In this document: positions 5,493-45,694 of the stretch, in pieces
Layout: each line of letters opens with the position of its first letter
Numbering within the stretch: the first letter of the stretch is position 1
Assembly (NCBI GenBank): GCA_028293725.1
Contig: JAQGOE010000366.1
Location: 1-47,182, forward strand
DNA: 47,182 nucleotides
From: Gammaproteobacteria bacterium
GTDB taxonomy: Bacteria; Pseudomonadota; Gammaproteobacteria; Steroidobacterales; Steroidobacteraceae
Direction: 5' to 3'
Made by a program: the position numbers and the translations under genes
Notes under the pieces: model-generated
The model's input: only the letters and a program-made list of their open reading frames with translations
Database searches by the model: none
What the model was told of the DNA's origin: nothing

Positions 5493-5508
5493 TAACTCTA
5501 ACGGGTGC
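5493..5508 (-). promoter_or_regulatory. Possible proximal operator copy at bufA
   Basis: Plus-strand reading TAACTC-TAAC-GGGTGC, a degenerate copy of the palindrome. Its centre is 30 bp (about three helical turns) from the stronger site at 5523. It overlaps the candidate -10 box, so it may be chance or a second, modulating site. Confidence 0.4.
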
Positions 5509-5522
5509 AACAACCGCGACGC

Positions 5523-5538
5523 TCACTCTATCGAGTGA
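5523..5538 (-). promoter_or_regulatory. Regulon operator upstream of bufA
   Basis: Perfect palindrome arms, TCACTC-TATC-GAGTGA, 63 bp upstream of the bufA start. On the minus strand a TAGAGT -10 box begins exactly 22 nt after it. Confidence 0.8.
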
Positions 5539-5569
5539 AGTCTCGAGGTCACCGCGAGGCTGGATAGGG

Positions 5570-6457
5570 CTATTTCTTCGCAACCATCTTGTCGTAGAAC
5601 GAATGCATGTGGTCCGAGATGTAATCGAGGTGATCTTCCACGGCGAAATGACCCGCCGCGAGTCGGTGTATCTCGGCCTTCGGCAAATCGGTTAGAAACG
5701 CTTCGCCGCCGGCAGCCGTGAAGAAAATGTCGTCCTGGCCCCAGAAAATGAGCGTCTTCGGCTGGCGGTCGCGCATGAACGCCTGCCATTTCGGATACAA
5801 GCCCACATTGGTCCGGTAGTCGTAAAACAGGTCGAGGTTCATACGCACCGAGTGCGGCCGCTGCATGAAGTAGAAGTCGGAGTCCCAATTGTCGGGGCTG
5901 ATCGCCTCCGGCTTCTTGGCACCCTGCATGTAAATGGCCTTGATCGTGTCGCGCGTCAGGAAGCCCTCCAGGGGCTTCTCCGTCTGCGGCGAGCGATTCT
6001 TCCACAGCGCCCCGCGCAAACCATCCCACACGGCCGTGAACCCTACTTCATACGCGTTGGAGTTCTGGACAATGAGCCATTCGAGTGCCTCGGGGTGCCG
6101 TCCCACGATGCGAAAACCAACCGGACCGCCGTAATCCTGGACGTATAGCCCGTACCGATCGAAGCCTTTCGCGGCGAGGAACTTCTCGTTGACCGCGGCG
6201 AGGTTGTCGAAGGTGTAGGCGTACTTGGCCGGATCGGGCGTGTCACTATTGCCGAAACCCGGATAATCCGGGGCGATGACATGGAAGCGATCCGACAGCG
6301 AGCGGATGAGATCGCGGTACTGGTGCGAGCTCGACGGAAAGCCGTGGAGCAACACTATTTTCGGCTTCCCGGGTGCCCCTGCCTCGCGGTAGGCAATCTT
6401 AAGGCCATCGATGTCGATGGAGCTGTAAGTCACTGGCGTCATGGCGCCGCTGGTCAT
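5570..6457 (-). CDS. Alpha/beta hydrolase, Asp-nucleophile (epoxide hydrolase/haloalkane dehalogenase-like)
   Basis: 295 residues from the ATG at 6457, which has AGGAGA 7 nt upstream; a longer TTG start at 6484 has no such site. The oxyanion-hole motif HGFPSS is at 39-44. The nucleophile elbow VQDYGGP places Asp108 where lipases have Ser. The catalytic His lies in GHFAVEDH near the C-terminus, and WGQDDIFF is typical for the acid strand. Asp-nucleophile members hydrolyse epoxides or carbon-halogen bonds; which applies here cannot be told. No export signal. It is 73 bp downstream of a paralogue on the same strand and is probably transcribed from the operator promoter at 7500. Related to the two other hydrolases in this window. 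Confidence 0.85.
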   Translation of the reverse strand: MTSGAMTPVTYSSIDIDGLKIAYREAGAPGKPKIVLLHGFPSSSHQYRDLIRSLSDRFHVIAPDYPGFGNSDTPDPAKYAYTFDNLAAVNEKFLAAKGFDRYGLYVQDYGGPVGFRIVGRHPEALEWLIVQNSNAYEVGFTAVWDGLRGALWKNRSPQTEKPLEGFLTRDTIKAIYMQGAKKPEAISPDNWDSDFYFMQRPHSVRMNLDLFYDYRTNVGLYPKWQAFMRDRQPKTLIFWGQDDIFFTAAGGEAFLTDLPKAEIHRLAAGHFAVEDHLDYISDHMHSFYDKMVAKK

Positions 6458-6530
6458 GTTCGGATCTCCTGGCGGAATAGGCAATTTATCGTTCTATCGA
6501 AACATCGAAGTGGGCTGTTCGCCGGCGTCC

Positions 6531-7436
6531 CTAGCGGACGCGTGCCGCCAGAAAACGCAGGATATGGTCTGCGATCGGGCCGGATTGTTCTTCCAGGGCG
6601 AAATGCCCCGTGTCGACAAAGTGAATTTCCGCATCCGGGACGTCACGCTTGAATGCCTCGGCGCCCGCGGGAATGAAGAACGGATCGTTCTTGCCCCATA
6701 CCGCCAGCACCGGCGGTTTCACCTTGCGCAAAGTCTCGTGCCACTTGGGGTAGCGCGCTACGTTGTTCTGGTAGTCATACACAAGCGCGAGTTGGATGTC
6801 CGCATTGCCAGGGCGATCCAACGTCATCTGATCGAACGTGTAGCTGTCGGGATTCAGAGCTTCCGGATCCTTGACGCCGACGGAGTATTGATACTTGGTG
6901 GACTCGAGTGTGAGCAACCCGCGCACCTTCTTCTCGGTGGTAGGATTGCGATCCTTCCAATACGGCTCCATGGTGTCCGCCCAGAAGCCGCCCAACCCTT
7001 CCGTATAGGCATTGCCATTCTGAGTGATGATGGCCTGGATGCGCTCGGAATGATTGAAGAACAAACGCATGCCCACCGGGGCACCGTAATCCTGGATATA
7101 GATCGAATATTTCGCGACGCCCACGGCCTGGAGAAACTTGTCCATGAGGTCCGCGATCGAATCGAAGCTGTACTTGAATTCAGTCGTCTTCGGCTGATCG
7201 CTGTAACCAAACCCGGGGTAATCGGGAGCGATCACGTGGTATTGCCCCGCCAGCTTCGGAATCAGATCCCGAAACATATGCGATGACGACGGGAATCCAT
7301 GCAACAGGACGACCGCGGGCTTACCCGGGTCGCCGGCTTCCCGATAAAAAATCCCGATGCCGTCGACTGTCTTGCGCCTGTAGCGGACCTGCGCGACTGC
7401 CGATTTGGAGTGATCCGCGCTGACAGGTGTAACCAT
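6531..7436 (-). CDS. Alpha/beta hydrolase, Asp-nucleophile, paralogue 2
   Basis: 301 residues. HGFPSSSHMFRDLIPKL forms the oxyanion region, IQDYGAPVG puts the nucleophile Asp at 116, WGKNDPFF precedes the acid region, and the catalytic His is in GHFALEEQ. It is cytoplasmic, with no signal peptide. It is much closer to the secreted hydrolase at 16707-17657 than to its neighbour at 5570: both share IQDYGAPVG, NPTTEKKV and SYTFDQMTLDRPGN. It heads a hydrolase pair transcribed leftwards from the operator at 7500. Start at 7436 with GGAG about 9 nt upstream. Substrate unknown; epoxide or organohalide detoxification is the family-level guess. Confidence 0.86.
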   Translation of the reverse strand: MVTPVSADHSKSAVAQVRYRRKTVDGIGIFYREAGDPGKPAVVLLHGFPSSSHMFRDLIPKLAGQYHVIAPDYPGFGYSDQPKTTEFKYSFDSIADLMDKFLQAVGVAKYSIYIQDYGAPVGMRLFFNHSERIQAIITQNGNAYTEGLGGFWADTMEPYWKDRNPTTEKKVRGLLTLESTKYQYSVGVKDPEALNPDSYTFDQMTLDRPGNADIQLALVYDYQNNVARYPKWHETLRKVKPPVLAVWGKNDPFFIPAGAEAFKRDVPDAEIHFVDTGHFALEEQSGPIADHILRFLAARVR

Positions 7437-7499
7437 TTTCCATTACTCCGCGACCGTTGAGTCATCGGGCGACATTCGCATCGCGGTTCTCCTAAAGCT

Positions 7500-7515
7500 T
7501 CACTCGATCGGGTGT
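7500..7515 (-). promoter_or_regulatory. Regulon operator upstream of the hydrolase pair
   Basis: TCACTC-GATC-GGGTGT, 64 bp upstream of the start at 7436. The -10 at the standard 22-nt gap is a weaker GAATGT. Confidence 0.7.
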
Positions 7516-7615
7516 TTTTAATCTGGTAGCTGACTCACCGGGAACACGTCTGGGTGGCCTCGACCCTGACGCAAAAAAAGGGTGTGAAGTTTACCCGACA
7601 CCCCCCGCGGCACGC

Positions 7616-7631
7616 CCACTCAATCGGGTGA
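7616..7631 (+). promoter_or_regulatory. Regulon operator upstream of the ferritin-like gene
   Basis: CCACTC-AATC-GGGTGA. A TAACCT -10 box begins at 7654, exactly 22 nt later; the gene starts at 7740. Confidence 0.72.
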
Positions 7632-7739
7632 ATATCTCTTACACGTGGGCGAGTAACCTTGACACTACCGCCATACTTCTCGACGTGCGACGGCGGCAGA
7701 CAAACGAACCAAACCATCATTGCCATGGAAGTGTCACAC

Positions 7740-8710: not shown

Positions 8711-8726
8711 CCCCAAACCCGTGCTA

Positions 8727-8742
8727 TCACTCACTTGAGTGT
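8727..8742 (+). promoter_or_regulatory. Regulon operator upstream of carbonic anhydrase
   Basis: TCACTC-ACTT-GAGTGT. TAGCGT begins at 8765, exactly 22 nt later; the start codon is at 8829. Confidence 0.78.
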
Positions 8743-8828
8743 TCCGGCCTGCGCCTGGCTTCGATAGCGTCGACGACGTGGTGTGTGTGGCCCGCTCGCA
8801 CACCCTTTTATCATTATGGAGGCCGAAC

Positions 8829-10910: not shown

Positions 10911-10916
10911 TCAAAT

Positions 10917-10932
10917 TCACTCTGGAGAGTGA
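10917..10932 (+). promoter_or_regulatory. Regulon operator upstream of the outer-membrane barrel remnant
   Basis: Fully symmetric over 18 bp when flanks are counted: TTCACTC-TGGA-GAGTGAA (10916-10933). TATAGT begins at 10956, 23 nt later. Confidence 0.78.
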
Positions 10933-11021
10933 ACACTCAACACATAGTCATGCGCTATAGTTAGCAACATCAATTCAGGCGACGAAACTCCTCACGGAGA
11001 AATTCGTCAAGAACGAGTCAT

Positions 11022-12761: not shown

Positions 12762-12860
12762 AATCCGACTCCCTCCTGCGAGCGATGAGAGCACGTCCGG
12801 TCTTCTTCTGCCTCGGAAGCGCCCTCACCCGAATTATCGATCTCACCCCGCCAAGAATAT

Positions 12861-12876
12861 TCACTCGAATGGGTGA
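12861..12876 (-). promoter_or_regulatory. Regulon operator upstream of the PPOX gene
   Basis: TCACTC-GAAT-GGGTGA, between the kinase 1 stop and the PPOX start. On the minus strand GATAAT begins exactly 22 nt after it. Confidence 0.76.
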
Positions 12877-12886
12877 TGCGCTTCCA

Positions 12887-15800
12887 TCACAGATAGACGC
12901 CGCGCGCCGGCGCCGTCACTTTGACCGTCGTACCCGCGCCCTCGCGGCTGTCGACCGAAAAGACCGCATTGAGCAGTGCCGCACGCTCCTGCATACCCAC
13001 CAAGCCGAAGTGGTTCTCCTCGGCCGCCTCCAGGCCCCCCCGGAAACCCCGGCCGTTGTCGCTGATGGTCAATCGAAGCCAACGTCGGTGATAGTGCACG
13101 GTCGCGGTGATCGAGCTCGCACCGGAATGCTGGAAGGCATTGTTGATCGCCTCAATCCCAATGCCGGTCAATTGCTCCTGGGCTTCGGGAGTCAGGTATC
13201 TCGGTTGCCCTGCGACCCGAATCTCCAACTGCGGTTCAGAACGCCCGCCGTGGGCGTGGCCGGCCGCCGCGAGCGCTTCGGCGAGTTCGCCAGGTCGCGC
13301 ACTGGCATGGCGTACCTGGATGATCCGCTCGCGCGCCTCGATGACGATATTCACGGTCTGGGAGGCGACCGTCTCAATCTCGTTCTGTTGCCTCGGCGGT
13401 ATCTCTGGGTCGACCGCCCAGGTCTGCAAACGAAACATCAGCGCCTGTATGCCCTGCAACAGGGTGTCATGAAGATCGCGCGCAATGCGCTCCCGCTCGG
13501 CGCTTCGAGCCTCCATGCGCCCTCTCAAAGTCTCCTTGACGTGCCGGATACGCGCCAGGTATCCCAACCACACCGCTACGAGAAGGACCGCCACGCTCAA
13601 GAGTTTGAACGCCGGGGTCTGGTAGAATGCAGCCTGCACCATGAAGCGCAGCTCGGCGGCATTATCGCTCCAGGCGCCGCCTTCGTTGCGCGCTTTCACA
13701 TGGAACGTGTAACTGTTGGGCGGCAGATTGGTGTAGAACGCCTGCCGCCGGACACCGGCGTCGTTCCACGCCCGATCGAAGCCTTCCAACTTGTATTGAA
13801 ACTGCACTTTCCGCGGCGACGCGAAACTCGGCGCGGTGTAGTCGATCTGAAAGTCATGTGTCAGGGGCGGTGTCGTTGCGTCGCCCTGAATGGAGTAACC
13901 ACGGTGATCTGCCGTAAATGCCTCGACATATACGGGGGGCGCCGCGGGCACCCGGTTCGCGAGGCGTGGATCGATCATCTGCAGCGTGCTGTTGTTGGCG
14001 AACCAGAGCCTGCCATCGTGAGTCCGGGCGGCACCGGTGAATGGCGCCAGCGCCCCTTGCGCTCCATCGGCGGCATCCCAGGTTCTGACCTCGAGTCGTG
14101 CCGCCGGATCGCGCCACCACTTGAGCAGTTCCGGCGCTTCGATCCGAACCAGGCCACATTGCATGTAGAGCCACAGATTTCCGCTGGCATCGAGAATGCT
14201 GGCGAAGAGTTGCCTGCAAGGTAATCCGTTGCGGGTCGACATCACGGCGGTGCTTCCCGCTCTCCAGGCGAGTAATCCGAACCCCGTCGACGCCAGCACC
14301 GACCCATCGGGCTCCGTGATCAACTGTTTTATGCGCGAAGGCGGGCCCTGGTGCGCGGGGTGGAGGACCTCCAGTCTCTCATCCCGATAACGGGCCAGCT
14401 CCCCGGTCAGTAGACCCAGCCAAATGCCGCTGTCAGGATCGCTCGTAACCTTGCTGGACGCCGGCAGCCCTTTGACCTCGGAAGCGCTCCGAAGGGCAGG
14501 ATCGATCCGCAACACCCTGCGTTGGGGCGGCCCGAGAGCGACCGCCCAGAGTTGCCCCTGACGGTCCTGCGTCATCGACACGATCATGCCGACGCGACCC
14601 CCATCGTCCATGTGCACGGGCTCGAAATGGCCGTCCCGCAACGTATTGAGCGAGTCGCCGATGCCAACCCACATCCGCCCGGCGCCATCTTCGAACACGG
14701 TCGTAATCTGTTTCTCCGTGAGGGTCTGCGCGGCCGGCGCGAAAGTCGGAGCGCCTTCGCGCAACACGTAGAGCGTCTGCCAGCCCCCTACCCACAAAGA
14801 CCCATCGCGCGTGGTCAGAACCAAGTCGACCTCGGTCGAATAAAAATCCGGGCGCCGCGCGATACTGACGACCGGCCGGTCGCGAAAATGATCGATCCCC
14901 TTGTCGGTGACCGCCCAGACGGTCCCTTCGCCATCTTGAAACAGTCGACGCACACTGACCCCGGAAAGACCGTCCGCCGTGGAGAAGTGTTCGGCGCGAT
15001 CCCGGTACACCCGGTAGATGCCATTGTCGGAGGTCCCTACCCAGAGCGCATTATCCCGATCGACCAATAAGCTCAGTACATCCAACTTCGACCCGTCGAA
15101 ACCGGGCGCCGTGACCGGCGTCAGCGCTCCATTCTGGAACCGCTCCAGACCCAGCCCCGGGCCGTTTCTGGCCACGCCAACGAGGATCGCACCGTCCGAA
15201 TCCGCCGCGAGCGCGACAATTCCCTCGGCATTCGCGTTGGCCTCCAGGCCGTGAAGCGGATACGTCTCGAGCTGGCCTTGCCTCCACTCGAGCAAGGCGG
15301 TGCTGGTGCCGATCCAGACCTGGCCACTGTCCTCGGCGAGCACCGAGAACGTGGTCTGCGGCTGAATACCCGCTTCAGGGCCGAAGCAGATCGGTTTGTT
15401 GTATTCGACGTGGCAAAGCGGCTGTTGTGCCCGGCTGCCTGAATGCCACAGCCACAGCCCGTTTTGCCGGTCCGCGGAGATGTGATCGACGTCCGCTTCA
15501 TCCGCTTCGAGGAGGTTGGTGACACGGCCGTGCTCGAAGTGGCTCAAGCCTCGTTCTGTACCGACCCATAAGCTGCCATCCTGCGCCCCCAGTAGAGAAA
15601 AGATCTGGCGGCTGGGCAGCGGCTCGCTACCCGCCGCGGGCCACGGAAGAAACCGCACTCCGTCGAACCGGAGCAGGCCGTTGCCGGTTCCAACCCAAAT
15701 GAATCCGTCTTTTCCCTGCGCGATCGCGAACGGGCGAGCCGGTATGGTGCCGTCACTGAGCGTCCACGCCTCGTGGGCGTATTCACCGAGACTCCAATCG

Positions 15801-15916
15801 GGATTCAGAGCGTCCGCCGCGCCTGGAAACACGATGAACACGACCGCCGCAGGCCGGGTTAGGCCGGATAGCAAGAATCGGATCGTGCGCACAGCCGACC
15901 TGAAGTACGGTGCCAT
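12887..15916 (-). CDS. Two-component propeller sensor histidine kinase 1
   Basis: 1009 residues. Signal/anchor segment at about 12-36, then Reg_prop beta-propeller repeats (GFIWVGTGNGLLRFDGVRF, GSLWVGTERGLSHFE, NALWVGTSDNGIYRV, GRMWVGIGDSLNTL). These are followed by a Y_Y_Y domain (YKLEGFDRAWNDAG, then YTFHVKARNEGG), one membrane helix and a HisKA_3 dimerisation helix with the phospho-acceptor His in RIARDLHDTLLQG (about residue 810). The HATPase_c has N box EAINNAFQHSG, G1 DNGRGF and G2 GLVGM. It senses through a periplasmic propeller and should phosphorylate a NarL-type regulator, most simply that at 19517. No operator lies upstream, so it is probably not under its own regulon. Confidence 0.92.
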   Translation of the reverse strand: MAPYFRSAVRTIRFLLSGLTRPAAVVFIVFPGAADALNPDWSLGEYAHEAWTLSDGTIPARPFAIAQGKDGFIWVGTGNGLLRFDGVRFLPWPAAGSEPLPSRQIFSLLGAQDGSLWVGTERGLSHFEHGRVTNLLEADEADVDHISADRQNGLWLWHSGSRAQQPLCHVEYNKPICFGPEAGIQPQTTFSVLAEDSGQVWIGTSTALLEWRQGQLETYPLHGLEANANAEGIVALAADSDGAILVGVARNGPGLGLERFQNGALTPVTAPGFDGSKLDVLSLLVDRDNALWVGTSDNGIYRVYRDRAEHFSTADGLSGVSVRRLFQDGEGTVWAVTDKGIDHFRDRPVVSIARRPDFYSTEVDLVLTTRDGSLWVGGWQTLYVLREGAPTFAPAAQTLTEKQITTVFEDGAGRMWVGIGDSLNTLRDGHFEPVHMDDGGRVGMIVSMTQDRQGQLWAVALGPPQRRVLRIDPALRSASEVKGLPASSKVTSDPDSGIWLGLLTGELARYRDERLEVLHPAHQGPPSRIKQLITEPDGSVLASTGFGLLAWRAGSTAVMSTRNGLPCRQLFASILDASGNLWLYMQCGLVRIEAPELLKWWRDPAARLEVRTWDAADGAQGALAPFTGAARTHDGRLWFANNSTLQMIDPRLANRVPAAPPVYVEAFTADHRGYSIQGDATTPPLTHDFQIDYTAPSFASPRKVQFQYKLEGFDRAWNDAGVRRQAFYTNLPPNSYTFHVKARNEGGAWSDNAAELRFMVQAAFYQTPAFKLLSVAVLLVAVWLGYLARIRHVKETLRGRMEARSAERERIARDLHDTLLQGIQALMFRLQTWAVDPEIPPRQQNEIETVASQTVNIVIEARERIIQVRHASARPGELAEALAAAGHAHGGRSEPQLEIRVAGQPRYLTPEAQEQLTGIGIEAINNAFQHSGASSITATVHYHRRWLRLTISDNGRGFRGGLEAAEENHFGLVGMQERAALLNAVFSVDSREGAGTTVKVTAPARGVYL

Positions 15917-17657: not shown

Positions 17658-17725
17658 CTGCCTTATCTCCCATGAGCGTGCAATGCCCTGCCACCCCATC
17701 ATCAGGCGAAATTTCGAGCAATAAA

Positions 17726-17741
17726 ACACCCGTTGGAGTCT
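17726..17741 (-). promoter_or_regulatory. Regulon operator (degenerate) upstream of the secreted hydrolase
   Basis: ACACCC-GTTG-GAGTCT, 69 bp before the start at 17657. A GATGAT lies at the 22-nt gap. Confidence 0.55.
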
Positions 17742-17826
17742 TGCCGGGTCACCGGTGACACCCTTGCGCGGGTCACCCGCATCGGTGTAATAATTTGCCC
17801 GCCTGCTGTTGTGACGGAGTTGTCCG

Positions 17827-18219: not shown

Positions 18220-18225
18220 GAAGAT

Positions 18226-18241
18226 TCACCCAGTTGAGTGA
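18226..18241 (+). promoter_or_regulatory. Regulon operator upstream of DUF4331 copy 1
   Basis: TCACCC-AGTT-GAGTGA with matching flanks. GAGGAT at 23 nt is the best -10 candidate; the start codon is at 18341. Confidence 0.7.
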
Positions 18242-18340
18242 ATCCTCCCCGCGCCGAGGTGATCGAGGATAACCCGACCGATGCTCGACTCAGGACGCGT
18301 GCGTTTGCCGAGTCGCCCTTCCATTGGCGGAGTTGTAGCT

Positions 18341-20149: not shown

Positions 20150-20208
20150 GGCGCTCTCCTACTAGGCGAAGCTTCGCACCATTTACACCCCGCGGCGAGA
20201 CTGCGGCG

Positions 20209-20224
20209 CCACTCTAAAGAGTGA
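20209..20224 (-). promoter_or_regulatory. Regulon operator upstream of response regulator 1
   Basis: CCACTC-TAAA-GAGTGA, 60 bp before the start. On the minus strand TAAATG begins 23 nt after it. It implies autoregulation. Confidence 0.72.
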
Positions 20225-20271
20225 ACTCCCGGCCTTGCAGCGAACGGCCACGCCCGAGCTGTCCGAACGGA

Positions 20272-20287: not shown

Positions 20288-20345
20288 TTTCGACAGATTT
20301 CCTTCGTGCGATCTTCGGTAGCGCCCTCCCTCACGAGGTGACCCT

Positions 20346-30874: not shown

Positions 30875-32641
30875 ATGAATGGATCGGCAATCGTCGGATC
30901 TCTTATTTCCGTCAACGTAGGACAACCACGCGAGATCCACTGGCGCGGCAAGACCTATCGCACGTCCATCTGGAAAACGCCGGTGCCGGGAAGGGTGAAG
31001 GTCAGCCGCTTAAACGTTGCGGGCGACGGCCAGGCCGATCTCGTGGGTCACGGTGGCGAGCAGCGCGCCGTGTTCGTCTACCAGATGGATTCGTATCGAC
31101 ACTGGGCGACGTTCCTGAACAGGGACGATCTGGCGCCCGGACAGTTCGGGGAAAATTTCACTGTCGAAGGGCTGTGCGATGCAGAGGTCTGCATCGGCGA
31201 TCGGTTTTCGATCGGCACCGCCGTTTTCGAGGTGTCCGCCCCGCGCGTGACCTGTTTCAAAGTGGGCATCCGCATGGACCGCCCCGACATGCCCGCCCTG
31301 CTCGTGTCACATCGTCGGCCGGGCTTCTATTTTCGGGTCATCGACGAGGGGGAAGTGGGCGCCGGGGACGCAATCCACCAACTCTCTGCGGGACCACAAC
31401 ACATGAGCGTCGTGGAAATCGACGCGCTGTTATATTCTTCCCACCATCCTGCCGAGGCGTTGCGCAGAGCGGCCGTCATCCCGGCACTCAGCCCCGGCTG
31501 GCAGACCTCGATCAAAGCGCTCCTCGAAGCGAGCGAACGAGGCCACCAGAACGGGAATGCAGGACTCTCGCCGCTGGCTCCCTCAACCCTGGCCTGGTCG
31601 GGCGTAAGAGAGCTGGTCGTCACGGCGACCGAGCAGGCCAGCGAGGAAGTCAGATGGTTCGAGTTGACTTCGCGCGATTCCGCGGCCCTCCCCGGCGCCA
31701 CTCCTGGACAATATCTCTCACTGCGAGTGAAGCCGACGGAGCCGGATTTACCGGTTGTCAGGAACTATTCGTTGTGCGGCCCACCCGCCGCGGGCCGTTA
31801 TCGAATCGCCGTTAAGAAGGAGGCGCTTGGCTCCGCAAGCACCTACTTGCATGAACGCGTGAAGCAAGGCGACGTCCTCGAAGTGTTAGCCCCTCGCGGT
31901 GAGTTCACACTGAAGCCGGGCGATGGACCCCTGGTGTTACTGAGTGCCGGAATCGGCGTCACACCGGTGTTAGCGATGCTCCACGCCAGCGCCGGATCTG
32001 CACGACCGCTGTGGTGGATACACGCCGCCCGTGATCGCGATCATCATCCCTTCAAAGACGAGATCGCCGGATTGCTGCGCAAAACGCCCCAGTCTGTGCG
32101 CCGGGTCATCTACAGCCAGCCGCGCGCTTGCGACCTGCCAGGGACGGATTATGACCTCGGCGGCCACCTGGATCTGCAGATGTTGCGCTCGTTGGATTTG
32201 CCGCTCACGGCGGATTTCTACATATGCGGCCCCGAGGCCTTCATCACGGCGCTGCGCTCGAGTCTGACGAGTCTCGGCGTCGCGGTGAGCCGGATCCACT
32301 TCGAGTTGTTCGGGCCGGGCGTGAAGCAAACATCCGCGGGGCAGCGGATTAAACCGCATCTCCCTGCTGGGGCGCCGCAGACCAGCGGACCCACGGTGAC
32401 TTTCGCGCGCAGCGGACTCACGGTCCGCTGGGGCTCCCAGTACGCGAACCTGCTCGAATTGACCGAGGCCTGTGAAGTGCCCGCCCGTTGGTCATGTCGT
32501 AGCGGCATTTGTCATAACTGCGAATCGCCCCTGCTGGAGGGCGCGGTGGATTACAGCACCATCCCGCTCGACCCGCCGGGCAGCGGAACTGTCCTCATTT
32601 GTTGTTCCGTCCCTAAAGGAGACATCGTCCTCGACCTCTAG
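30875..32641 (+). CDS. MOSC domain - flavin reductase - [2Fe-2S] ferredoxin fusion
   Basis: 588 residues. Domain order: MOSC (about 1-155, with VGHGGEQRAVFVYQMDSYRHW and the likely Mo-ligand Cys in APRVTCFKVGIRM), a 3-alpha domain (about 165-215), an FNR-type FAD domain (about 245-340, RNYSLCGPP), an NAD-binding domain (SAGIGVTPVLAML, YICGPEAF) and a C-terminal plant-type [2Fe-2S] ferredoxin (CRSGICHNC plus a final Cys near ICCS). The set is a self-contained molybdenum-cofactor reductase with its own electron supply from NAD(P)H. YiiM/YcbX relatives reduce N-hydroxylated compounds, including base analogues. Its -10 box ends only 7 nt before the ATG, so the transcript may be almost leaderless. 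Confidence 0.9.
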   Translation: MNGSAIVGSLISVNVGQPREIHWRGKTYRTSIWKTPVPGRVKVSRLNVAGDGQADLVGHGGEQRAVFVYQMDSYRHWATFLNRDDLAPGQFGENFTVEGLCDAEVCIGDRFSIGTAVFEVSAPRVTCFKVGIRMDRPDMPALLVSHRRPGFYFRVIDEGEVGAGDAIHQLSAGPQHMSVVEIDALLYSSHHPAEALRRAAVIPALSPGWQTSIKALLEASERGHQNGNAGLSPLAPSTLAWSGVRELVVTATEQASEEVRWFELTSRDSAALPGATPGQYLSLRVKPTEPDLPVVRNYSLCGPPAAGRYRIAVKKEALGSASTYLHERVKQGDVLEVLAPRGEFTLKPGDGPLVLLSAGIGVTPVLAMLHASAGSARPLWWIHAARDRDHHPFKDEIAGLLRKTPQSVRRVIYSQPRACDLPGTDYDLGGHLDLQMLRSLDLPLTADFYICGPEAFITALRSSLTSLGVAVSRIHFELFGPGVKQTSAGQRIKPHLPAGAPQTSGPTVTFARSGLTVRWGSQYANLLELTEACEVPARWSCRSGICHNCESPLLEGAVDYSTIPLDPPGSGTVLICCSVPKGDIVLDL

Positions 32642-32652
32642 GGGTGCCAGAT

Positions 32653-32668
32653 TCACTCGGACGAGTGT
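32653..32668 (+). promoter_or_regulatory. Regulon operator upstream of receiver B
   Basis: TCACTC-GGAC-GAGTGT. TATACC begins at 32691, exactly 22 nt later. Confidence 0.77.
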
Positions 32669-32701
32669 TCCACCTCTTGATCTGCGTGCGTATACCCTTG
32701 A

Positions 32702-33160
32702 ATGCAGGGGGTTTGCATTTCATTTACAGTGAATAAAGACGATCAGCCCAAGATCAAAGTCATGATTGCCAACGATCACCCGATCATGCGTGTCGGGCTG
32801 CGGATGGCTGTCCGACGCGAACGAGACATGGAAGTCGTGGGCGAGACGCGGGGCGCCCGTGACAGCATCGAGCAGTTCCAGCGGGTTCTCCCCGATGTCC
32901 TTCTGCTGGATCTCGATTCGCCCGACCAGAGCGGCCCCGATACCGTGGAGGCGATTCATCGTGCCTATCCAAACCTTCCCCTGCTCGTGCTGAGTTCCTA
33001 TCCGATCGACGCGAATGAGCTGCTGCGCCAGCCGAGCCCGGGGCCGGGGCCGGGGCCGGTGATGTTCATATTAAAGTCATCTTCCGGTGAGGAAATCATC
33101 GCAGCCCTGCGCACGGTGGTCGTCGATTTCTGCCAGCGGGAAAGCGCCTCCCGGCTCTAG
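32702..33160 (+). CDS. Stand-alone receiver-domain protein B
   Basis: 152 residues if begun at 32702. The promoter position suggests transcription starts near 32703, so the in-frame GTG at 32729 or ATG at 32762 may be the true start; none has a good ribosome site. It is receiver domain only, like protein A: IANDHPIMRVGLRM (Asn24-Asp25, the first acidic residue replaced), Asp70 in LLLDLDSP, Ser98, Lys125. Between beta-4 and beta-5 is a PSPGPGPGP insert encoded by a GGGGCC tandem repeat (33037-33060). It lies directly ahead of regulator 2 and may titrate phosphate in that pathway. Confidence 0.8.
   Translation: MQGVCISFTVNKDDQPKIKVMIANDHPIMRVGLRMAVRRERDMEVVGETRGARDSIEQFQRVLPDVLLLDLDSPDQSGPDTVEAIHRAYPNLPLLVLSSYPIDANELLRQPSPGPGPGPVMFILKSSSGEEIIAALRTVVVDFCQRESASRL
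33037..33060 (+). repeat. Hexanucleotide GGGGCC-type tandem repeat in receiver B
   Basis: About three in-frame copies of a CCGGGG-type unit, giving Pro-Gly repeats. Unit changes would keep the frame. Confidence 0.7.
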
Positions 33161-33243: not shown

Positions 33244-33876
33244 ATGAGCGTGCCTGACACGGCGCTGCGAGTCTTGATCGCGGACGATCACCCGGCCATG
33301 CGTGACGGACTCGCTCGAGCCATCGCTCAAGAGTCCAACATGACGGTCGTCGGCATGGTTGCCGACGGCGTCGCGGCCGTCACCCAGTTCAGCGCTTTGC
33401 GTCCGGATGTCGTTCTCATGGATCTGCAAATGCCTCGCAGAAATGGTCTGCAGGCGATCGCGGAGATCCGCGCCATCTGCGCGGACGCTTGCCTCGTCGT
33501 CCTCACGAGCTTCGCCGGCGATGCCAGAGTCAGCCGCGCACTCGAACTCGGGGCCGCATCCTACATTCTGAAAACCTCCCGGACCGAAACCATCGTTGCG
33601 ACCATACGCAGCGCCTGTAATGGCCGCACTGTCCTGGGACCCGATGTCTCGCACGATCTCGAACAACATCGCGGCATGGAGCCGCTGAGTCCGCGCGAAG
33701 TGAGTGTGCTGCGACTGGTGGCAGCCGGCAGGCACAATCGCAGCATCGGCGAAGGGTTGAATATCTCGGAGCAAACGGTCAAAAGCCGTATCAAGAACAT
33801 TCTTGCCAAACTCAACGCCCACGATCGATCCCACGCCGTCGTCCTGGCTATGAAGCGCGGCTTCCTGGATCCCTGA
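33244..33876 (+). CDS. NarL/FixJ-family response regulator 2
   Basis: 210 residues, collinear with regulator 1: Asp14/Asp15, phospho-acceptor Asp60 (VLMDLQMP), Thr88, Lys110, and a LuxR-type HTH with LSPREVSVLRLVAAG and SEQTVKSRIKNILAKL. The recognition helix differs from regulator 1 by a single Thr/Ser change, so the two probably share target sites. It lacks an operator of its own, unlike regulator 1. Kinase 2 is encoded convergently, and the two 3' ends overlap by 29 bp. It follows receiver B by 83 bp and may share its transcript if the small hairpin is read through. Confidence 0.92.
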   Translation: MSVPDTALRVLIADDHPAMRDGLARAIAQESNMTVVGMVADGVAAVTQFSALRPDVVLMDLQMPRRNGLQAIAEIRAICADACLVVLTSFAGDARVSRALELGAASYILKTSRTETIVATIRSACNGRTVLGPDVSHDLEQHRGMEPLSPREVSVLRLVAAGRHNRSIGEGLNISEQTVKSRIKNILAKLNAHDRSHAVVLAMKRGFLDP

Positions 33877-36800
33877 AACGGGTCCGCCTGGACCGCTGCC
33901 ACCAACGAACGATGAGGTCGGACCAACCGGTCCGCGCCACGTCCGCAAATGCGATGGCGGCGGGTACGTGAACCGAAACCTTGGCGCCGGTCGTCCCGTT
34001 GGGCCCCAAGGTAAAGGTAGCGCCCAACTGCTGGGCCCGCTCTTGCATCCCGAGAATGCCGTAGTGGCCGACCGAGCGATCCGCCCGCAACGGGGTTGGC
34101 GTGATCCCGCAGCCATCGTCGGCGACGGCTAGAATTATCGAGTTTGGATGGTATTCGACCGTCACTAGAACGCGTCGACACTTCGCGTGTTGGATGGCGT
34201 TGCGCACCGCCTCCCGGGCAATGTCGACGAGCTGTTGATACGCATCGTTCGTGATCGGATGCGGTATTCCCCGGGTGACGATCTCCACAGCCGGGTTCTC
34301 GTTGGCAGGCCGGTCATTGGCTATACGCTGCAACGTGGCGATGAGATCTGAATCCTTACTGTCGCCGCTGCGTAGCGCGACGATCCGATCTCTTGCCTCG
34401 ACCACGATCTCGCGTGCCTGCTCGGACACTTCGCGGATCTCGGCGCGCAGCTCGCCTGGCAAGGCGCGATCGTTTGCCCAGATGTTGGTGCGCAAGACCA
34501 AGGACTGTACCCCTTGCAACAGCGTGTCGTGCAGGTCGCGTGCGATGCGCTCCCGCTCGTACGTCCGGGCTGCGATGTGTTGGCGAATGCGCGCCTTGAT
34601 CTGCTCGGTGCGCACGATAACGGCGAGCACCAACAACAGGGTCGCCAGCAGCGCCACCATCGAGCGAAACCAGACAGTCTGGTAAAACGCGGCCGCCACC
34701 CGGAACGTGAGCACCGCCGTGTCGCTCCAGTGCCCGGCACCGTTTTCGGCCAGCAGTTCGAACCGGTGCTCCCCGGGGGAGAGATTCGTGTAGTAGGTCT
34801 GTCTGCGCATCCCTGCCTCCTGCCATGCGCTGTCGACACCGGTCAAGCGGTAACGAAAGTTGACTCGCTCGGGATCTCGTAAAACCAGCGCCGTGTAGTC
34901 GATTCGCAGGTTGCGCGGCAGCTCGGCATCGACCCGGTGCGCCCGTGGCACGTAGGTCACGTCATCGCCGGTGACGGTCTCGATCGACACCAGGGTCGAG
35001 GCACCCTGTTGAATTCTTTGTCGTGGATCGATCCACCATACCCCGTTCTGACGGCTGAACCAGAGCCGCCCATCCGCGCCTTTGAGGGCAGTGGGGAATG
35101 GCCGTATCACGACCGCGGCGCTCCCTAACCCATCGCGCCAATCGAACAGCTCGAAAGGCACCTCGTGCGGCTTGGCTGACAAGGCGATGTTGACACTGTC
35201 TTTTGAGAGACGGTAAATCCCGCGCGCGCCGTTGATCCACAGCTCACCGTCGTCCGTCTCGATAATCGCCCCTCCGAAGGCGAACCGCTCGCCGCCCTGA
35301 CCCCTGACCGCCACGAAGTGTTCACCCACCAGAGTGGCGAAACTCTGGTCGCCAGCCACCCAGACGTGGCGGCCGTGGACCGTGACGCCCAGGACATTGC
35401 CGACATGCAAACCGTCCGCCTCGCCATACGAGACCACCCGGGTCCCCTCGCGCACGACGACGCGATTGTTAGAATAGGTAATCCACAGCCGGCCACCCTC
35501 ATCGGCGAGCAGCCGCGTCGCGGGGCCCTCTGGCATCCCGGTCTGCGGCCCTTGTGCCTGCCACTCACCGTGCTCGCGTCGATAGAGCCCTCGAGTAGCG
35601 ATCGATACCCAGATATCTCCATCGGGCTCCACGGCGATGGCCTGATACAACGAGGTCGTCATGCCGTTGAGCGAGGCGGCCGCAGCGGGTGGGGGCGCGA
35701 TTTTCAGAGTCTCGCCGTGGAAATGGCGCACGATGCCGTCCATGCCCGCAGTCCACCATGCGCCATCGCGCGTCGTAGTCGCCGCCGTGACTCCAACGCC
35801 CGCTGTGGGCTCCGCCCGAATCGAGCGACCCACACGCATGCTCGAGCCCGTGAAGCTGCCAACGAGTAGCTCGCCCTCCTGTTCGCCAATCAGAAAGGGC
35901 AGGTAGATGGTGTCAGAAAGGTTCAACCGGTGCAGCAGCGCCACGCTGAACCGATCCAAACCTCCCATGGTGCCGACCCAGACATTCCCTTCGCGATCCT
36001 CCAGCACCGATTCGACTTCACCCGACAAGCCGTCCTCGACGGTAAACAACTCCTCGGTTGCCTGCGAATTCGGTGCGGGGGACCACCGCACCCGGGCGAG
36101 CGCGCCCGGGGCGGAATGCCACCAAGCGCCGCCAGAGTCCACCATCGATTGCGACGGTTCATACTCCAGATCGCCCGTCCCCCCGGCCGGCGACCACGTG
36201 GAATCGACCGGCGTTGCGAAGCGCTGCGCCAAGGCCTGGGATCGAGCTATCGGCAAAAACTGTCCGGACGTATTGTCGCGCGCGAAAGCGGACGTCGGCG
36301 TAAGCACTTCCAGCCGTGACGCGCAGACAGCGAGTGAGAGCGCTCGCTCTTCGCTGTAGCCGGACGACGAGTCGATCTTCTGCCAGCGCTTGCCATCGAA
36401 TCGAGCCAGGCCGCCAACGGTGGCGACCCAGAGCGCCCCGTCAGAGGTTCGGAGGAATTGATGGACGGCGCCAGCGGGAATGCTGCCCGGGGGGAAATGG
36501 GTGAGCTCACCTTGACGGAGGCGACTCACCCCGCCGAACAAATAACCGATCCACAGGTCCCCGTTGAGGTCCGCGTACAGTGCCCAGATCGAGGCATTCG
36601 GCAGTCGTTCGCCCAAAGTAGAATCGAACCGGACTCCGTCGAACCGATAGAGTCCTGTTTCGGTGCCGACCCAGAGGAAACCGTCCGGGGTCTGCGCCAG
36701 GGCCCTGACGCTGTTAGGGGCGCCGTCCTTGGCCCGGAAGGCGGTATGGCGTAACTCGGACAGTCCGAACTGTCTTTCGAGCATGTACATCGAAGCGTCG

Positions 36801-36880
36801 CCCGGCCGTGACGCTCCGCCTGTCGCCGGCAACGAGAATACAGTCAGCGTGCAAAACAGAATGTAGCAACGCGTCAACAC
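33848..36880 (-). CDS. Two-component propeller sensor histidine kinase 2
   Basis: 1010 residues with the same architecture as kinase 1. It has a signal peptide (about 1-24), Reg_prop repeats (GFLWVGTETGLYRFDGVRF, GDLWIGYLFGGVSRL, GNVWVGTMGGLDRF), a Y_Y_Y domain (YRLTGVDSAWQEAG), one membrane helix, HisKA_3 with RIARDLHDTLLQG (His near 783), and HATPase_c with N box EAVRNAIQHAK, G1 DDGCGI and G2 GILGM. The tail after the ATPase is long and Arg-rich because the stop lies inside the convergent regulator 2 gene. Regulator 2 is the natural partner. The propellers of the two kinases differ widely, so the signals probably differ. Confidence 0.92.
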   Translation of the reverse strand: MLTRCYILFCTLTVFSLPATGGASRPGDASMYMLERQFGLSELRHTAFRAKDGAPNSVRALAQTPDGFLWVGTETGLYRFDGVRFDSTLGERLPNASIWALYADLNGDLWIGYLFGGVSRLRQGELTHFPPGSIPAGAVHQFLRTSDGALWVATVGGLARFDGKRWQKIDSSSGYSEERALSLAVCASRLEVLTPTSAFARDNTSGQFLPIARSQALAQRFATPVDSTWSPAGGTGDLEYEPSQSMVDSGGAWWHSAPGALARVRWSPAPNSQATEELFTVEDGLSGEVESVLEDREGNVWVGTMGGLDRFSVALLHRLNLSDTIYLPFLIGEQEGELLVGSFTGSSMRVGRSIRAEPTAGVGVTAATTTRDGAWWTAGMDGIVRHFHGETLKIAPPPAAAASLNGMTTSLYQAIAVEPDGDIWVSIATRGLYRREHGEWQAQGPQTGMPEGPATRLLADEGGRLWITYSNNRVVVREGTRVVSYGEADGLHVGNVLGVTVHGRHVWVAGDQSFATLVGEHFVAVRGQGGERFAFGGAIIETDDGELWINGARGIYRLSKDSVNIALSAKPHEVPFELFDWRDGLGSAAVVIRPFPTALKGADGRLWFSRQNGVWWIDPRQRIQQGASTLVSIETVTGDDVTYVPRAHRVDAELPRNLRIDYTALVLRDPERVNFRYRLTGVDSAWQEAGMRRQTYYTNLSPGEHRFELLAENGAGHWSDTAVLTFRVAAAFYQTVWFRSMVALLATLLLVLAVIVRTEQIKARIRQHIAARTYERERIARDLHDTLLQGVQSLVLRTNIWANDRALPGELRAEIREVSEQAREIVVEARDRIVALRSGDSKDSDLIATLQRIANDRPANENPAVEIVTRGIPHPITNDAYQQLVDIAREAVRNAIQHAKCRRVLVTVEYHPNSIILAVADDGCGITPTPLRADRSVGHYGILGMQERAQQLGATFTLGPNGTTGAKVSVHVPAAIAFADVARTGWSDLIVRWWQRSRRTRFRDPGSRAS

Positions 36881-38692: not shown

Positions 38693-38696
38693 GGCT

Positions 38697-38712
38697 TCAC
38701 TCAACCGAGTGA
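38697..38712 (-). promoter_or_regulatory. Regulon operator beside the truncated reductase
   Basis: Perfect arms, TCACTC-AACC-GAGTGA, with symmetrical flanks, in the short gap between the NodT-type gene and the truncated reductase. No -10 box at the usual gap; GGAGTG stands there. Confidence 0.68.
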
Positions 38713-38738
38713 AAATCGCACCCCGCGAGTGTCTGGCA

Positions 38739-42915: not shown

Positions 42916-43007
42916 TTACTGTACTGCCCCGATATTCACGGCCAACCCCTTCCTCAGGAACGGATGAAAAACGGGGCTGACTCTCGCATCGGAGTTTCGC
43001 TAAATAT

Positions 43008-43023
43008 TCACTCAATCGGGTGC
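43008..43023 (-). promoter_or_regulatory. Regulon operator upstream of the efflux operon
   Basis: TCACTC-AATC-GGGTGC; first of three copies in the divergent region between the efflux operon and PhzF. Confidence 0.68.
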
Positions 43024-43072
43024 ATTTATCCGCCGACACCGGTGGCTTTGAAACCGGCGCCGCATGGAACAT

Positions 43073-43088
43073 TCACTCAATCGAGTGA
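43073..43088. promoter_or_regulatory. Regulon operator, middle copy of the divergent region
   Basis: Perfect arms with flanks: TTCACTC-AATC-GAGTGAA (43072-43089). 83 bp before the PhzF start; no -10 box at the usual gap on the plus strand. Confidence 0.75.
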
Positions 43089-43121
43089 AGACGTTCGCAC
43101 CGGGTTCTGTGCGGCCAAACA

Positions 43122-43137
43122 ACACCCGAACGGGTGA
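43122..43137 (+). promoter_or_regulatory. Degenerate operator proximal to PhzF
   Basis: ACACCC-GAAC-GGGTGA, 34 bp before the start at 43172 and 49 bp from the middle copy. Confidence 0.52.
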
Positions 43138-43171
43138 TGCGGTGCCAGGCGGCGTATGCAAAAGTCCTGAC

Positions 43172-44719: not shown

Positions 44720-44778
44720 TTCGCCTTCGAGACGATCGGTCGAGCTACCAACGAACCGAAGCCCGGCGTCGACCGCGG

Positions 44779-45399
44779 TCAGACAAGCTCGGCCACATCC
44801 GCTCGCAAAATCGGCACCAACTCGCGCTCAAACCACGGATTGCGCTTCAACCAACCCGTGTTGCGCCATGAAGGGTGCGGTAAGGGCAGCCTCTTGGGCC
44901 CTTCCCCAGTCTCATAAACCTCACGCCAACGCCGCACCGTCCCCGTCACACCCTCGGCGGTCTGTTTCGAACCCAAGTGCCAACGCTGCGCATACTGTCC
45001 GATCAGGATGAGCAACTGCAGGTTAGGCAATTGCTCAAAGAGCCGGTTGCGCCACAACTCCGCACACTCCTTGCGAGGCGGCAAATCCCCTCCCTGTGCG
45101 TCATTTCCGGGAAAACAAAATCCCATCCCGATGATCGCAATCTTGCGACTGTCATAGAACGTCGCGTCATCGAGCCCCATCCAACTCTTTAACCGCACTC
45201 CCGACGGATCTGTGTAGGGCCGCCCCGACGCATGCACTCTCGCTCCGGGCGCTTGGCTGGCGATACAGATGTGCGCCGACCGTGACACCTGCAATACCGG
45301 CCGCGGCTCGTGCGGTAAAGCAGCCCCGTAACGAGGCTCATCCCTGCACACTCTGCAGGCGCGGATCGCGCTCAAAAGCTGGTCTAACTTCAAAGTCAT
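44779..45399 (-). CDS. Uracil-DNA glycosylase family protein
   Basis: 206 residues from the ATG at 45399 (MTLKLDQLLSAIRACRVC), the usual start for this family; the frame runs open to 45522. Motifs: SQAPGARVHASGRPYTDPSG in place of the GQAPG motif, GMGFCFPG, and LPLPHPSWRNTGWLKRN near the C-terminus. A Cys pair (CRVC) occurs near the start, but the four-Cys iron-sulfur set of family 4 is not evident. It presumably removes uracil or related deaminated bases. The degenerate operator at 45554 lies 155 bp upstream. Convergent with the hypoxanthine glycosylase gene. Confidence 0.8.
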   Translation of the reverse strand: MTLKLDQLLSAIRACRVCRDEPRYGAALPHEPRPVLQVSRSAHICIASQAPGARVHASGRPYTDPSGVRLKSWMGLDDATFYDSRKIAIIGMGFCFPGNDAQGGDLPPRKECAELWRNRLFEQLPNLQLLILIGQYAQRWHLGSKQTAEGVTGTVRRWREVYETGEGPKRLPLPHPSWRNTGWLKRNPWFERELVPILRADVAELV

Positions 45400-45553
45400 C
45401 GCAACACATCCCGACCGATGAGCCGCACAGACCGCGGCATCCCAGTTGCGATTATATCCTCCCATCGGCCAAGTCCGGGCGATGCGTACTCGAATCCCTC
45501 GAGCAGCCAAAGCCCACCCCATGGCGCAGCGCCTGCTTTCCGCTCGCCAGGAT

Positions 45554-45569
45554 TCACCCTTTCGAGTCT
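45554..45569 (-). promoter_or_regulatory. Degenerate operator upstream of the UDG-family gene
   Basis: TCACCC-TTTC-GAGTCT. No -10 box at the usual gap. Confidence 0.48.
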
Positions 45570-45678
45570 TCCTTAACGGTGCTCAACCACGCAGCATCCC
45601 AACGCCTGTAGCGGCTTCACCGGCGCCGAGCACGGCGAACGTAACCGACCGTCCTTGCATGGCGCGGCAGTACATTAC

Positions 45679-45694
45679 ACAATCTATCGAGTGA
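45679..45694 (+). promoter_or_regulatory. Regulon operator upstream of DUF4331 copy 2
   Basis: ACAATC-TATC-GAGTGA: the right arm is perfect, the left weak. TAAAAT begins at 45718, 23 nt later; the start codon is at 45806. Confidence 0.62.

What the first reader, a model, noticed from the sequence alone, without database searches (positions are those of the whole stretch)
5493..45694. A window-wide regulon marked by one palindromic operator
About two dozen copies of TTCACTC-N4-GAGTGAA (core 16 bp) occur from 5.5 to 45.7 kb. They lie in front of bufA, the hydrolases, ferritin-like/cytochrome c, carbonic anhydrase, PPOX, both DUF4331 genes, regulator 1, both receivers, lactonase, bufBC, MFS, P460, SDR/MOSC, the efflux operon, PhzF and the UDG gene. 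Nearly all are in gene-start regions, none clearly inside an intact gene. Such density suggests a single response unit. I know of no described regulon with this make-up.
Basis: partly seen in the sequence, partly recalled or inferred. Interest (0 to 1): 0.95.

Follow-up and report, generated by a model that had tools for sequence, protein, structure and literature searches.

The report
One-operator detoxification island, self-regulated
A 40-kb stretch of DNA from an unidentified bacterium repeats one palindromic signal about two dozen times, usually at the same fixed distance before a promoter-like element of a predicted detoxification, metal-buffering or efflux gene, and two switch proteins encoded in the same stretch likely bind it to turn the whole block on together.

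Summary
TTCACTC-N4-GAGTGAA-like palindromes occur 19 times at <=3 mismatches (1.47 expected). A matrix finds 26 sites from 5.5 to 45.7 kb: 23 solid, 3 doubtful.

New evidence on what they are. (1) A -10-like hexamer lies 21 (+-1) nt past the palindrome on the gene side: clear in 16, weaker in 4, absent in 4 of 24 site-gene pairs (0 of 2000 nulls). The palindrome is thus centred near -42, an activator position. (2) Homologues of the window's NarL-type regulator RR1 carry the same palindrome and spacing before their own gene. (3) A matrix built only from those genomes ranks the window's sites 1-12, and 21 of the top 22.

Model: RR1 and its paralogue RR2, served by two propeller-sensor kinases, likely activate about 20 promoters, including their own and those of two stand-alone receivers. 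In relatives the element is found almost only at the regulator's own promoter. In a sample of 369 genomes of the class none has more than 3 strict matches; the window has 8 in 47 kb. Binding, signal and genome-wide spread are untested; no genome is held for this window.

The parts
5522..5539 (-). operator of bufA; predicted -10 TAGAGT at 5495-5500
5492..5509 (-). doubtful site; overlaps the predicted -10 of 5522
5176..5460 (-). bufA, DUF2282 bufferin precursor with four Cys
7499..7516 (-). operator of the abh2-abh1 hydrolase genes; weak -10
7615..7632 (+). operator of ferritin-like + cytochrome c; -10 TAACCT 7654-7659; a stronger -10-like hexamer on the abh2 side (7588-7593)
8726..8743 (+). 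operator of carbonic anhydrase-PEP-mutase-like genes; -10 8765-8770; likely start ATG 8829
10916..10933 (+). operator of a beta-barrel protein gene; -10 TATAGT 10956-10961
12860..12877 (-). operator of the PNPOx-like gene; -10 GATAAT 12833-12838
12887..15916 (-). HK1: Reg_prop + Y_Y_Y + HisKA_3 + HATPase sensor kinase; no operator directly in front
17725..17742 (-). operator between abh3 (-) and RidA (+); -10 GATGAT 17698-17703 towards abh3 only
18225..18242 (+). operator of DUF4331a; weak -10
19517..20149 (-). RR1: NarL/FixJ-type response regulator (Response_reg + GerE)
20208..20225 (-). operator of RR1, centre 67 nt from its start; -10 TAAATG 20180-20185
20271..20288 (+). operator of ABM-MFS-GST, centre 67 nt from the ABM start; -10 GATCTT 20310-20315; also upstream of RR1, without a -10 facing it
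23951..23968 (+). operator of REC1; -10 GATGAT 23989-23994
24028..24408 (+). REC1: stand-alone receiver, no output domain
24502..24519 (+). operator of the lactonase-like propeller gene; -10 24541-24546
25768..25785 (+). operator of bufB-bufC-DoxX; -10 TAAGCT 25807-25812
29359..29376 (-). operator of MFS2; -10 GATTAT 29332-29337
29419..29436 (+). operator of cytochrome P460; weak -10; likely start ATG 29528 or 29534
30823..30840 (.). bidirectional operator of SDR (-) and MOSC (+); -10 AACAAT 30796-30801 and TACAAT 30862-30867
30862..30879 (+). doubtful site; its first six bases are the predicted -10 of 30823
32652..32669 (+). operator of REC2-RR2; -10 TATACC 32691-32696
32702..33160 (+). REC2: stand-alone receiver
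33244..33876 (+). RR2: second NarL/FixJ-type regulator, 59% identical to RR1
33848..36880 (-). HK2: second propeller sensor kinase, convergent with RR2; no operator directly in front
35321..35338 (.). doubtful site inside HK2, no -10 on either side
38696..38713 (-). perfect palindrome 3 nt from ATG 38692 of a 5'-shortened Pyr_redox gene; no -10; perhaps a relic
43007..43024 (-). operator of HlyD-MFS-OEP efflux genes; weak -10 GAGAGT 42980-42985
43072..43089 (+). perfect palindrome upstream of PhzF, no -10 at the standard distance
43121..43138 (+). operator of PhzF-UDG1; -10 AAAAGT 43160-43165; likely start ATG 43172
45553..45570 (.). site between UDG2 (-) and DUF4331b (+); no -10 towards UDG2, weak one towards DUF4331b
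45678..45695 (+). operator of DUF4331b; -10 TAAAAT 45718-45723

Best explanation
The palindromes are the likely binding sites of the island's own NarL-type response regulators RR1 and RR2, which would activate about 20 promoters by sitting 21 nt upstream of the -10 hexamer, where a -35 element would normally be. Shown by sequence: the sites, their spacing to a -10-like hexamer on the gene side in most cases, and the same element in front of the regulator's own gene in relatives. Inferred: the two Reg_prop sensor kinases (HK1, HK2) sense an unknown signal outside the cytoplasm and phosphorylate RR1/RR2; the dimer binds the 7-N4-7 inverted repeat centred near -42 and recruits RNA polymerase. RR1 and the REC2-RR2 pair are targets themselves, so the switch would amplify itself, while the two induced receivers without output domain (REC1, REC2) would compete for kinase phosphate and damp it. 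Output, by family names only: copper-buffering bufferin (BufA, BufB/C, DoxX), redox and detoxification enzymes, a tripartite efflux set and two further MFS transporters, and uracil-DNA-glycosylase-like proteins.
For: Sites far above chance. Spacing: over 24 site-gene pairs the -10 score peaks in the 5-nt windows that hold offsets 21 and 22, mean 2.58 against 0.08 for the null, 0 of 2000 circular-shift nulls reach it. Single pairs: on the gene side 16 of 24 have a -10 score that at most 5.1% of window positions reach, 20 of 24 at 12%; on the opposite side of the 20 sites used in one direction, 1 of 20 at 5% (7615, which faces abh2) and 3 of 20 at 12%. Relatives: 40 of 46 upstream regions of RR1 homologues (52-59% identical) hold AYYC-N4-GRGB, against 8.1% of 2300 random stretches of the same loci; 36 with the fuller motif have their best -10 (GATAGT 13, CATAGT 9), chosen among offsets 20-23, at 21 nt in 28, 22 in 4, 23 in 4. 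A matrix from those 36 promoters alone ranks window sites 1-12 and 21 of the top 22; 20 hits above 10 bits against 1.54 (max 5) in 200 shuffles and 4.2 per 47 kb in the relatives' own loci. RR1 and RR2 fall in one supported clade of 17 (95/91) and share 47 of 65 residues in the DNA-binding domain. A Reg_prop kinase lies upstream on the other strand within 750 nt in 21 of 46 homologue loci. REC2: 41 of 45 relatives, the query counted, are short receivers without GerE. D60 and K110 are kept in REC1 and REC2.
Against: No binding, expression or mapped start site. Four of 24 tested pairs have no -10 at the distance: RidA, PyrRedox, UDG2 and PhzF from site 43072 (43121 may serve it). Four of the 26 sites rank low with the relatives' matrix (20208 rank 29, 30862 rank 32, 10916 rank 37, 35321 not in the top 45), among them RR1's own. 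The relatives' motif was written down after the window's matrix had pointed to those sites, so one search is free of window letters but not of the choice of motif. Six of 46 homologues lack the core motif (L107, L119, L120, L136, L139, L146); the composite element is at 38 of 46 (the model partly trained on them) and at 0 of the 4 more distant loci L007-L010. Relatives' half-site is mainly ACCC, the window's ACTC, with a helix change D/E to Q, so specificity has shifted. In ComA, a NarL-type regulator with the same N4 spacing, an inverted repeat in the class II position works poorly (PMC4797271, passages). The first acidic residue of the receiver pocket is A in REC1 and N in REC2, so phosphorylation of these is uncertain.
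Confidence: 0.8

Rival explanations
1. The palindrome is a repressor operator (LysR, AraC or an unseen repressor encoded elsewhere) that keeps the island silent until a ligand appears.
For: Two-fold symmetry; LysR-type (36962-37876) and AraC-type (16175-16678) genes lie in the island; an AraC-type gene is near the regulator in several relatives.
Against: A fixed 21-nt distance to the -10 is expected for activation, not needed for repression. In relatives the element is in front of the response regulator gene. The LysR and AraC genes have no site directly in front, though both may be read from upstream operators.
Confidence: 0.08
2. The element is the promoter of an alternative sigma factor: the palindrome would be its -35 region.
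For: Fixed distance to a -10-like hexamer.
Against: The 18-bp symmetry and its use in both directions at one site (30823) fit a dimer; no sigma factor among the window proteins scanned, apart from weak cross-matches of the RR1/RR2 helix-turn-helix to Sigma70_r4; the hexamers were found with a vegetative -10 matrix.
Confidence: 0.04
3. The element is real and RR-bound but is used over the whole genome, and the window is no special island.
For: No genome is held, so it cannot be excluded.
Against: No site in 1-5.4 kb of the window; in 12 relatives' genomes a strict form of the element, modelled on the regulator's promoter, occurs 0-2 times each.
Confidence: 0.2
4. Only one of the regulators binds; the other regulator and the receivers are decaying copies.
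For: REC1 and REC2 lack an output domain; the first acidic residue is changed.
Against: REC2-like short receivers are a conserved family in the protein database (41 of 45); RR2 has both domains and is in the same clade as RR1.
Confidence: 0.2

Closest known systems
ComP-ComA regulon of Bacillus subtilis (ComA box, inverted repeat of TTGCGG with a 4-nt spacer; PMC4797271, passages seen)
   Same: NarL/FixJ-type regulator; inverted repeat with a 4-nt spacer; several targets
   Different: ComA's inverted repeat acts from a class I position and a direct repeat from class II; here the inverted repeat itself is at the class II position. Other half-site sequence, other sensor, contiguous island.
DosR/DevR regulon of mycobacteria (recalled, not from a call; one search found no paper)
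   Same: Two kinases on one NarL-type regulator, a palindrome near -35, clustered stress genes (all recalled)
   Different: Sequence, sensors and gene set; the closest solved chains to RR1 are VraR, with DevR further down.
Reg_prop/Y_Y_Y kinase - NarL regulator pairs of Dyella, Rhodanobacter and relatives (loci L001-L006, L107-L146)
   Same: Same regulator family, same kinase architecture, same operator-21 nt--10 element
   Different: There almost only the regulator's own promoter carries it; half-site mainly ACCC instead of ACTC.
Bufferin gene clusters (PMC12452194, passages seen)
   Same: DUF2282 precursor with four Cys, MNIO enzyme, DUF2063 partner, DoxX
   Different: Precursor and enzymes lie 20 kb apart here and share a likely response-regulator operator; the passages name sigma factor/NrsF genes in Buf1 clusters, and the paper's main text has 0 occurrences of 'response regulator' and of 'histidine kinase'.

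Membership tests
NarL/FixJ response regulators (RR1, RR2) | Receiver domain followed by a GerE/LuxR-type HTH | tested here: met
   Pfam Response_reg and GerE in both
NarL/FixJ response regulators (RR1, RR2) | Phospho-acceptor Asp, acidic pair and Lys | tested here: met
   RR1 D14, D15, D60, K110 invariant in alignment A2; RR2 sequence shows ADDHP, MDLQMP, ILKT
NarL/FixJ response regulators (RR1, RR2) | Phosphorylation-dependent dimer binding to an inverted repeat | not testable with these tools
   needs protein
Class II activator-dependent promoter | Activator site overlapping the -35 at a fixed distance from the -10 | tested here: met
   21 +-1 nt spacing in 20 of 24 pairs at the 12% level and in 36 relatives' promoters; position relative to the start site is inferred
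Class II activator-dependent promoter | Activation shown in vivo | not tested
   no experiment
Reg_prop/Y_Y_Y sensor kinases (HK1, HK2) | Propeller repeats, Y_Y_Y, HisKA_3, HATPase_c | tested here: met
Bufferin (Buf1) cluster | DUF2282 precursor, MNIO, DUF2063, DoxX | tested here: met
Bufferin (Buf1) cluster | Sigma factor/NrsF genes, found in Buf1 clusters (not said to be in all, so not defining) | tested here: not met
   no such family in the window proteins scanned
Single regulon | One operator across many promoters | tested here: met
Single regulon | Sites confined to the island in its genome | not testable with these tools
   no genome held

The most novel reading that the evidence does not exclude
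A regulator that in its relatives mainly runs its own promoter has captured a whole 40-kb neighbourhood: 24 of 40 genes from bufA to DUF4331b have its operator directly in front and 15 more follow within 84 nt on the same strand. Two propeller kinases, two regulators and two induced receiver-only proteins make one self-amplifying, self-damping switch that brings copper-buffering bufferin, efflux, redox detoxification and DNA-repair-like genes under two-component control: the first regulon that my searches know of for this kinase-regulator family.
Probability: 0.5. Interest if true: 0.72.

Novelty: new variant of a known kind. Interest (0 to 1): 0.62.

Why it matters
It ties an operator and a promoter format to a large two-component family (Reg_prop kinase + NarL regulator) from sequence alone, with a prediction testable in a laboratory strain. 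It suggests how a self-regulating switch can take over a contiguous gene island, and gives a shared expression signal to families of unclear role (DUF4331, ferritin-like, P460, propeller lactonase), so that they can be studied as one response. It would also be a response-regulator-controlled bufferin system.

Tried and rejected
Rejected: a link to known plasmids (megablast of 18000-30800 and 10000-33200 against the plasmid collection: no match). Rejected: the ORF 5052-5330 as bufA (no family); the real one is 5176-5460. Rejected: 5492, 30862 and 35321 as independent operators. Rejected likewise: that the kinases, AraC- and LysR-type genes are outside the regulon; they lack a site of their own, but three of the four follow closely on the same strand.

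Led nowhere: the window's own consensus in six relatives' genomes (1, 5, 9, 0, 9, 0 matches against 4, 5, 3, 1, 12, 1 for the control, i.e. background). This fits one ACCC-type site per genome but does not prove it. Of 12 strict-form matches in 12 genomes, 9 are at a promoter of an RR1 homologue; the other three (L147, L150, L153) were read; I saw no clear -10 at 21 nt and did not follow them. That strict form copies the regulator's promoter, so it would miss other kinds of target. REC2 relatives in 233 genomes of the Dyella family: only full regulators by frame length.

Literature: searches listed no paper on this motif or on a regulon of this kinase-regulator family, and none that holds the word DUF4331 (0 papers). 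The lists are capped: one search listed 20 of 520, 20 of 33, 12 of 70,339, 10 of 13. Only open-licence papers are held. Of PMC5192318 I saw the abstract and section list; of PMC4797271 and PMC12452194 passages; all others as search listing only.

Not done: a genome-wide count for the window's organism; a look at the contigs that carry the closest homologues (0 scans of metagenome contigs allowed, none asked for).
Full report
What is there. The palindrome TTCACTC-N4-GAGTGAA is found 19 times at up to 3 mismatches, where 100 shuffles of the window give 1.47 on average and 4 at most. An iterated 24-column matrix settles on 26 sites between 5492 and 45695. Four are perfect. The three lowest-scoring are doubtful: 5492 and 30862 overlap predicted -10 elements of the next operator, and 35321 lies inside HK2 with no -10 on either side. 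I therefore count 23. By my gene table, made with the sites in view, 19 of all 26 are fully intergenic although only 9.8% of 18-mers are; six of the other seven lie at or in the 5' part of ORFs listed from their first possible start. A rescan finds none in 1-5.4 kb or beyond 45.7 kb.

What the genes are. Pfam names: bufA (DUF2282), three related alpha/beta hydrolases, ferritin-like + cytochrome c, carbonic anhydrase, a PEP-mutase-like enzyme, a beta-barrel protein, a PNPOx-like protein, RidA, two DUF4331 proteins, an ABM protein, MFS transporters, a GST, a lactonase-like propeller, MbnB/TglH/ChrH + DUF2063 + DoxX (bufB, bufC, DoxX), cytochrome P460, an SDR, a MOSC-FAD-NAD-Fer2 fusion, an HlyD-MFS-OEP efflux set, PhzF and two UDG-superfamily proteins. 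Regulators: two kinases with Reg_prop, Y_Y_Y, HisKA_3 and HATPase (12887-15916, 33848-36880, both -); two NarL-type regulators, RR1 (19517-20149, -) and RR2 (33244-33876, +); two receivers without output domain, REC1 (24028-24408) and REC2 (32702-33160); an AraC-type and a LysR-type gene. I missed RR2 in my first gene list and found it by tblastn.

How the sites lie. I tested 24 site-gene pairs (22 sites, two of them in both directions) with a plain E. coli-like -10 matrix, recalled and not trained on this window. The score peaks in the 5-nt windows that begin at 18-21 nt past the 18-mer, mean 2.58 against 0.08 for circular shifts, 0 of 2000 reaching it. The best offset within 18-22 is 21 in 15 pairs, 22 in 5, 20 in 1, lower in 3. 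Pair by pair 16 of 24 gene-side hexamers are in the best 5.1% of the window and 20 of 24 in the best 12%; the four failures are RidA, PyrRedox, UDG2 and PhzF from 43072 (site 43121 has a hexamer at 3.8%). On the opposite side, for the 20 sites used in one direction, 1 of 20 is in the best 5%, and that one (7615) faces abh2; 3 of 20 are in the best 12%. If the hexamer is at -12 to -7, the palindrome spans -51 to -34, centre about -42. That is the class II activator position; a repressor would not need it. At 20208/20271, between RR1 and ABM, the two sites are mirror images: each is centred 67 nt from one start codon and has its -10 on that side. Site 30823 has a -10 on both sides, for SDR and MOSC. 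The start sites are predicted, not mapped; for MOSC and PhzF the prediction falls on or next to the start codon (starts, offsets).

Who binds. RR1's closest database homologues, 86-99% identical, come from jgi, ena and lgn sources with no organism named. The nearest in the genomes searched are about 58% identical at most (398 genomes of the order; one search names Dyella, Rhodanobacter and Frateuria). A Reg_prop kinase lies upstream on the other strand within 750 nt in 21 of 46 such loci (for a first look). Upstream of the regulator gene I found the palindrome: the window's matrix put it first or second in the locus in 10 of 16 rows (9 of 14 distinct places). I then fetched 40 more regions. 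Of 46 upstream regions, 40 hold AYYC-N4-GRGB, against 8.1% of random stretches; a few of the 40 hold it at another place than the rest (L138 for one). The misses are L107, L119, L120, L136, L139 and L146. In 36 with the fuller motif a -10, mostly GATAGT or CATAGT, follows at 21 nt (28), 22 (4) or 23 (4), towards the regulator gene. The sites mostly begin 100-126 nt before the regulator gene; RR1's begin 76 nt (20208) and 139 nt (20271) before it, so the place is alike, not the same. With the composite model, partly trained on these loci, the element is at 38 of 46 regulator promoters and at 0 of the 4 distant loci L007-L010; only 5 hits lie elsewhere in about 1 Mb, 13 more are the same operators read on the other strand, and one shuffle per locus gave 1 hit in all.

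The cross-genome test. A matrix built from those 36 promoters, none from the window, was run on the window. Its 12 best hits, and 21 of its best 22, are sites of the finding; the intruder is 7011, inside abh2. Above 10 bits it finds 20, against 1.54 (max 5) in 200 shuffles and 4.2 per 47 kb in the relatives' own loci. 5492 ranks 24, 20208 29, 30862 32, 10916 37, and 35321 is not in the top 45. The test uses no window letters, but I wrote down the relatives' motif after the window's matrix had pointed me to it, so it is not blind. Still, the palindrome in the window and the one in front of the homologues behave as one element, and the regulator is the likely binder.

RR1 and RR2. RR1, RR2 and 15 database sequences form one supported clade of 17 (95/91) inside the family; 16 of the 17 carry SEQTVK at the start of the recognition helix, one AEQTVK, where the homologues in genomes mostly have SEDTVK. 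The window's half-site is mostly ACTC where relatives mainly have ACCC; a joint shift of helix and half-site is possible but not proven (L003, L125, L141, L143 and L145 have ACTC with D or E). The 65-residue DNA-binding domains of RR1 and RR2 share 47 residues.

REC1 and REC2. Both keep the phospho-acceptor Asp and the Lys; the first acidic residue is A or N. Of 45 relatives of REC2 (query included), 41 are short receivers without GerE, 4 are full regulators, so REC2 is a conserved kind, not a fresh ruin. Such relatives were not seen in 233 genomes of the Dyella family: all listed matches lie in open frames of 183 aa or more. That the receivers damp the switch is inference.

How special it is. 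In 12 relatives' genomes a strict form of the element occurs 0-2 times each, 12 times in all, 9 of these at a promoter of an RR1 homologue; three of the 12 genomes have none although their regulator promoters hold a variant. In 369 sampled genomes of the class WTCACYC-N4-GRGTGAW occurs at most 3 times per genome, 85 of 369 having any; the window has 8 in 47 kb. Of the 40 genes from bufA to DUF4331b, 24 have one of the 23 sites directly in front, 15 follow another gene on the same strand within 84 nt, and one, HK1, follows AraC at 258 nt. Operons are presumed. RidA, PyrRedox and UDG2 have a site without a -10, so LysR and HK2, which follow PyrRedox, may or may not be targets.

Limits. Nothing is known of binding or of the signal. 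ComA, with the same N4 spacing, works poorly as an inverted repeat in the class II position (PMC4797271, passages); this argues for care.

Noticed in passing
window 37883-38692: Pyr_redox gene matches its family only from profile position 84 on; the FAD-binding start is missing and the perfect palindrome 38696 lies 3 nt before its ATG, with no -10.
   Followed up: partly
window 30875-32641: 588-aa fusion of MOSC (YiiM-like) with FAD, NAD and 2Fe-2S domains.
   Followed up: no
window 2489-2974: Fragment matching an integrase core (rve_3) just outside the operator-bearing stretch; a possible trace of a mobile element.
   Followed up: no
window 5570-7436, 16707-17612, 18281-19414, 45740-46885: Paralogues inside the island have operators in front: hydrolases abh2/abh3 about 62-64% identical, DUF4331a/b 54%.
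   Followed up: partly
L009 and L010, about 130 nt before the regulator gene: Novosphingobium homologues (43%) have CACCC-N4-GGGG-type palindromes at a like distance, so the operator may be older than this family; no composite hit there.
   Followed up: no
L132, 6918 nt before the regulator gene: A second composite element, TTCACTCTTTCGGGTAAT with CATGCT 21 nt on: a possible second target in a relative.
   Followed up: no
window 10041-10910: 289-aa ORF without any Pfam match, last gene of the presumed carbonic anhydrase operon.
   Followed up: no
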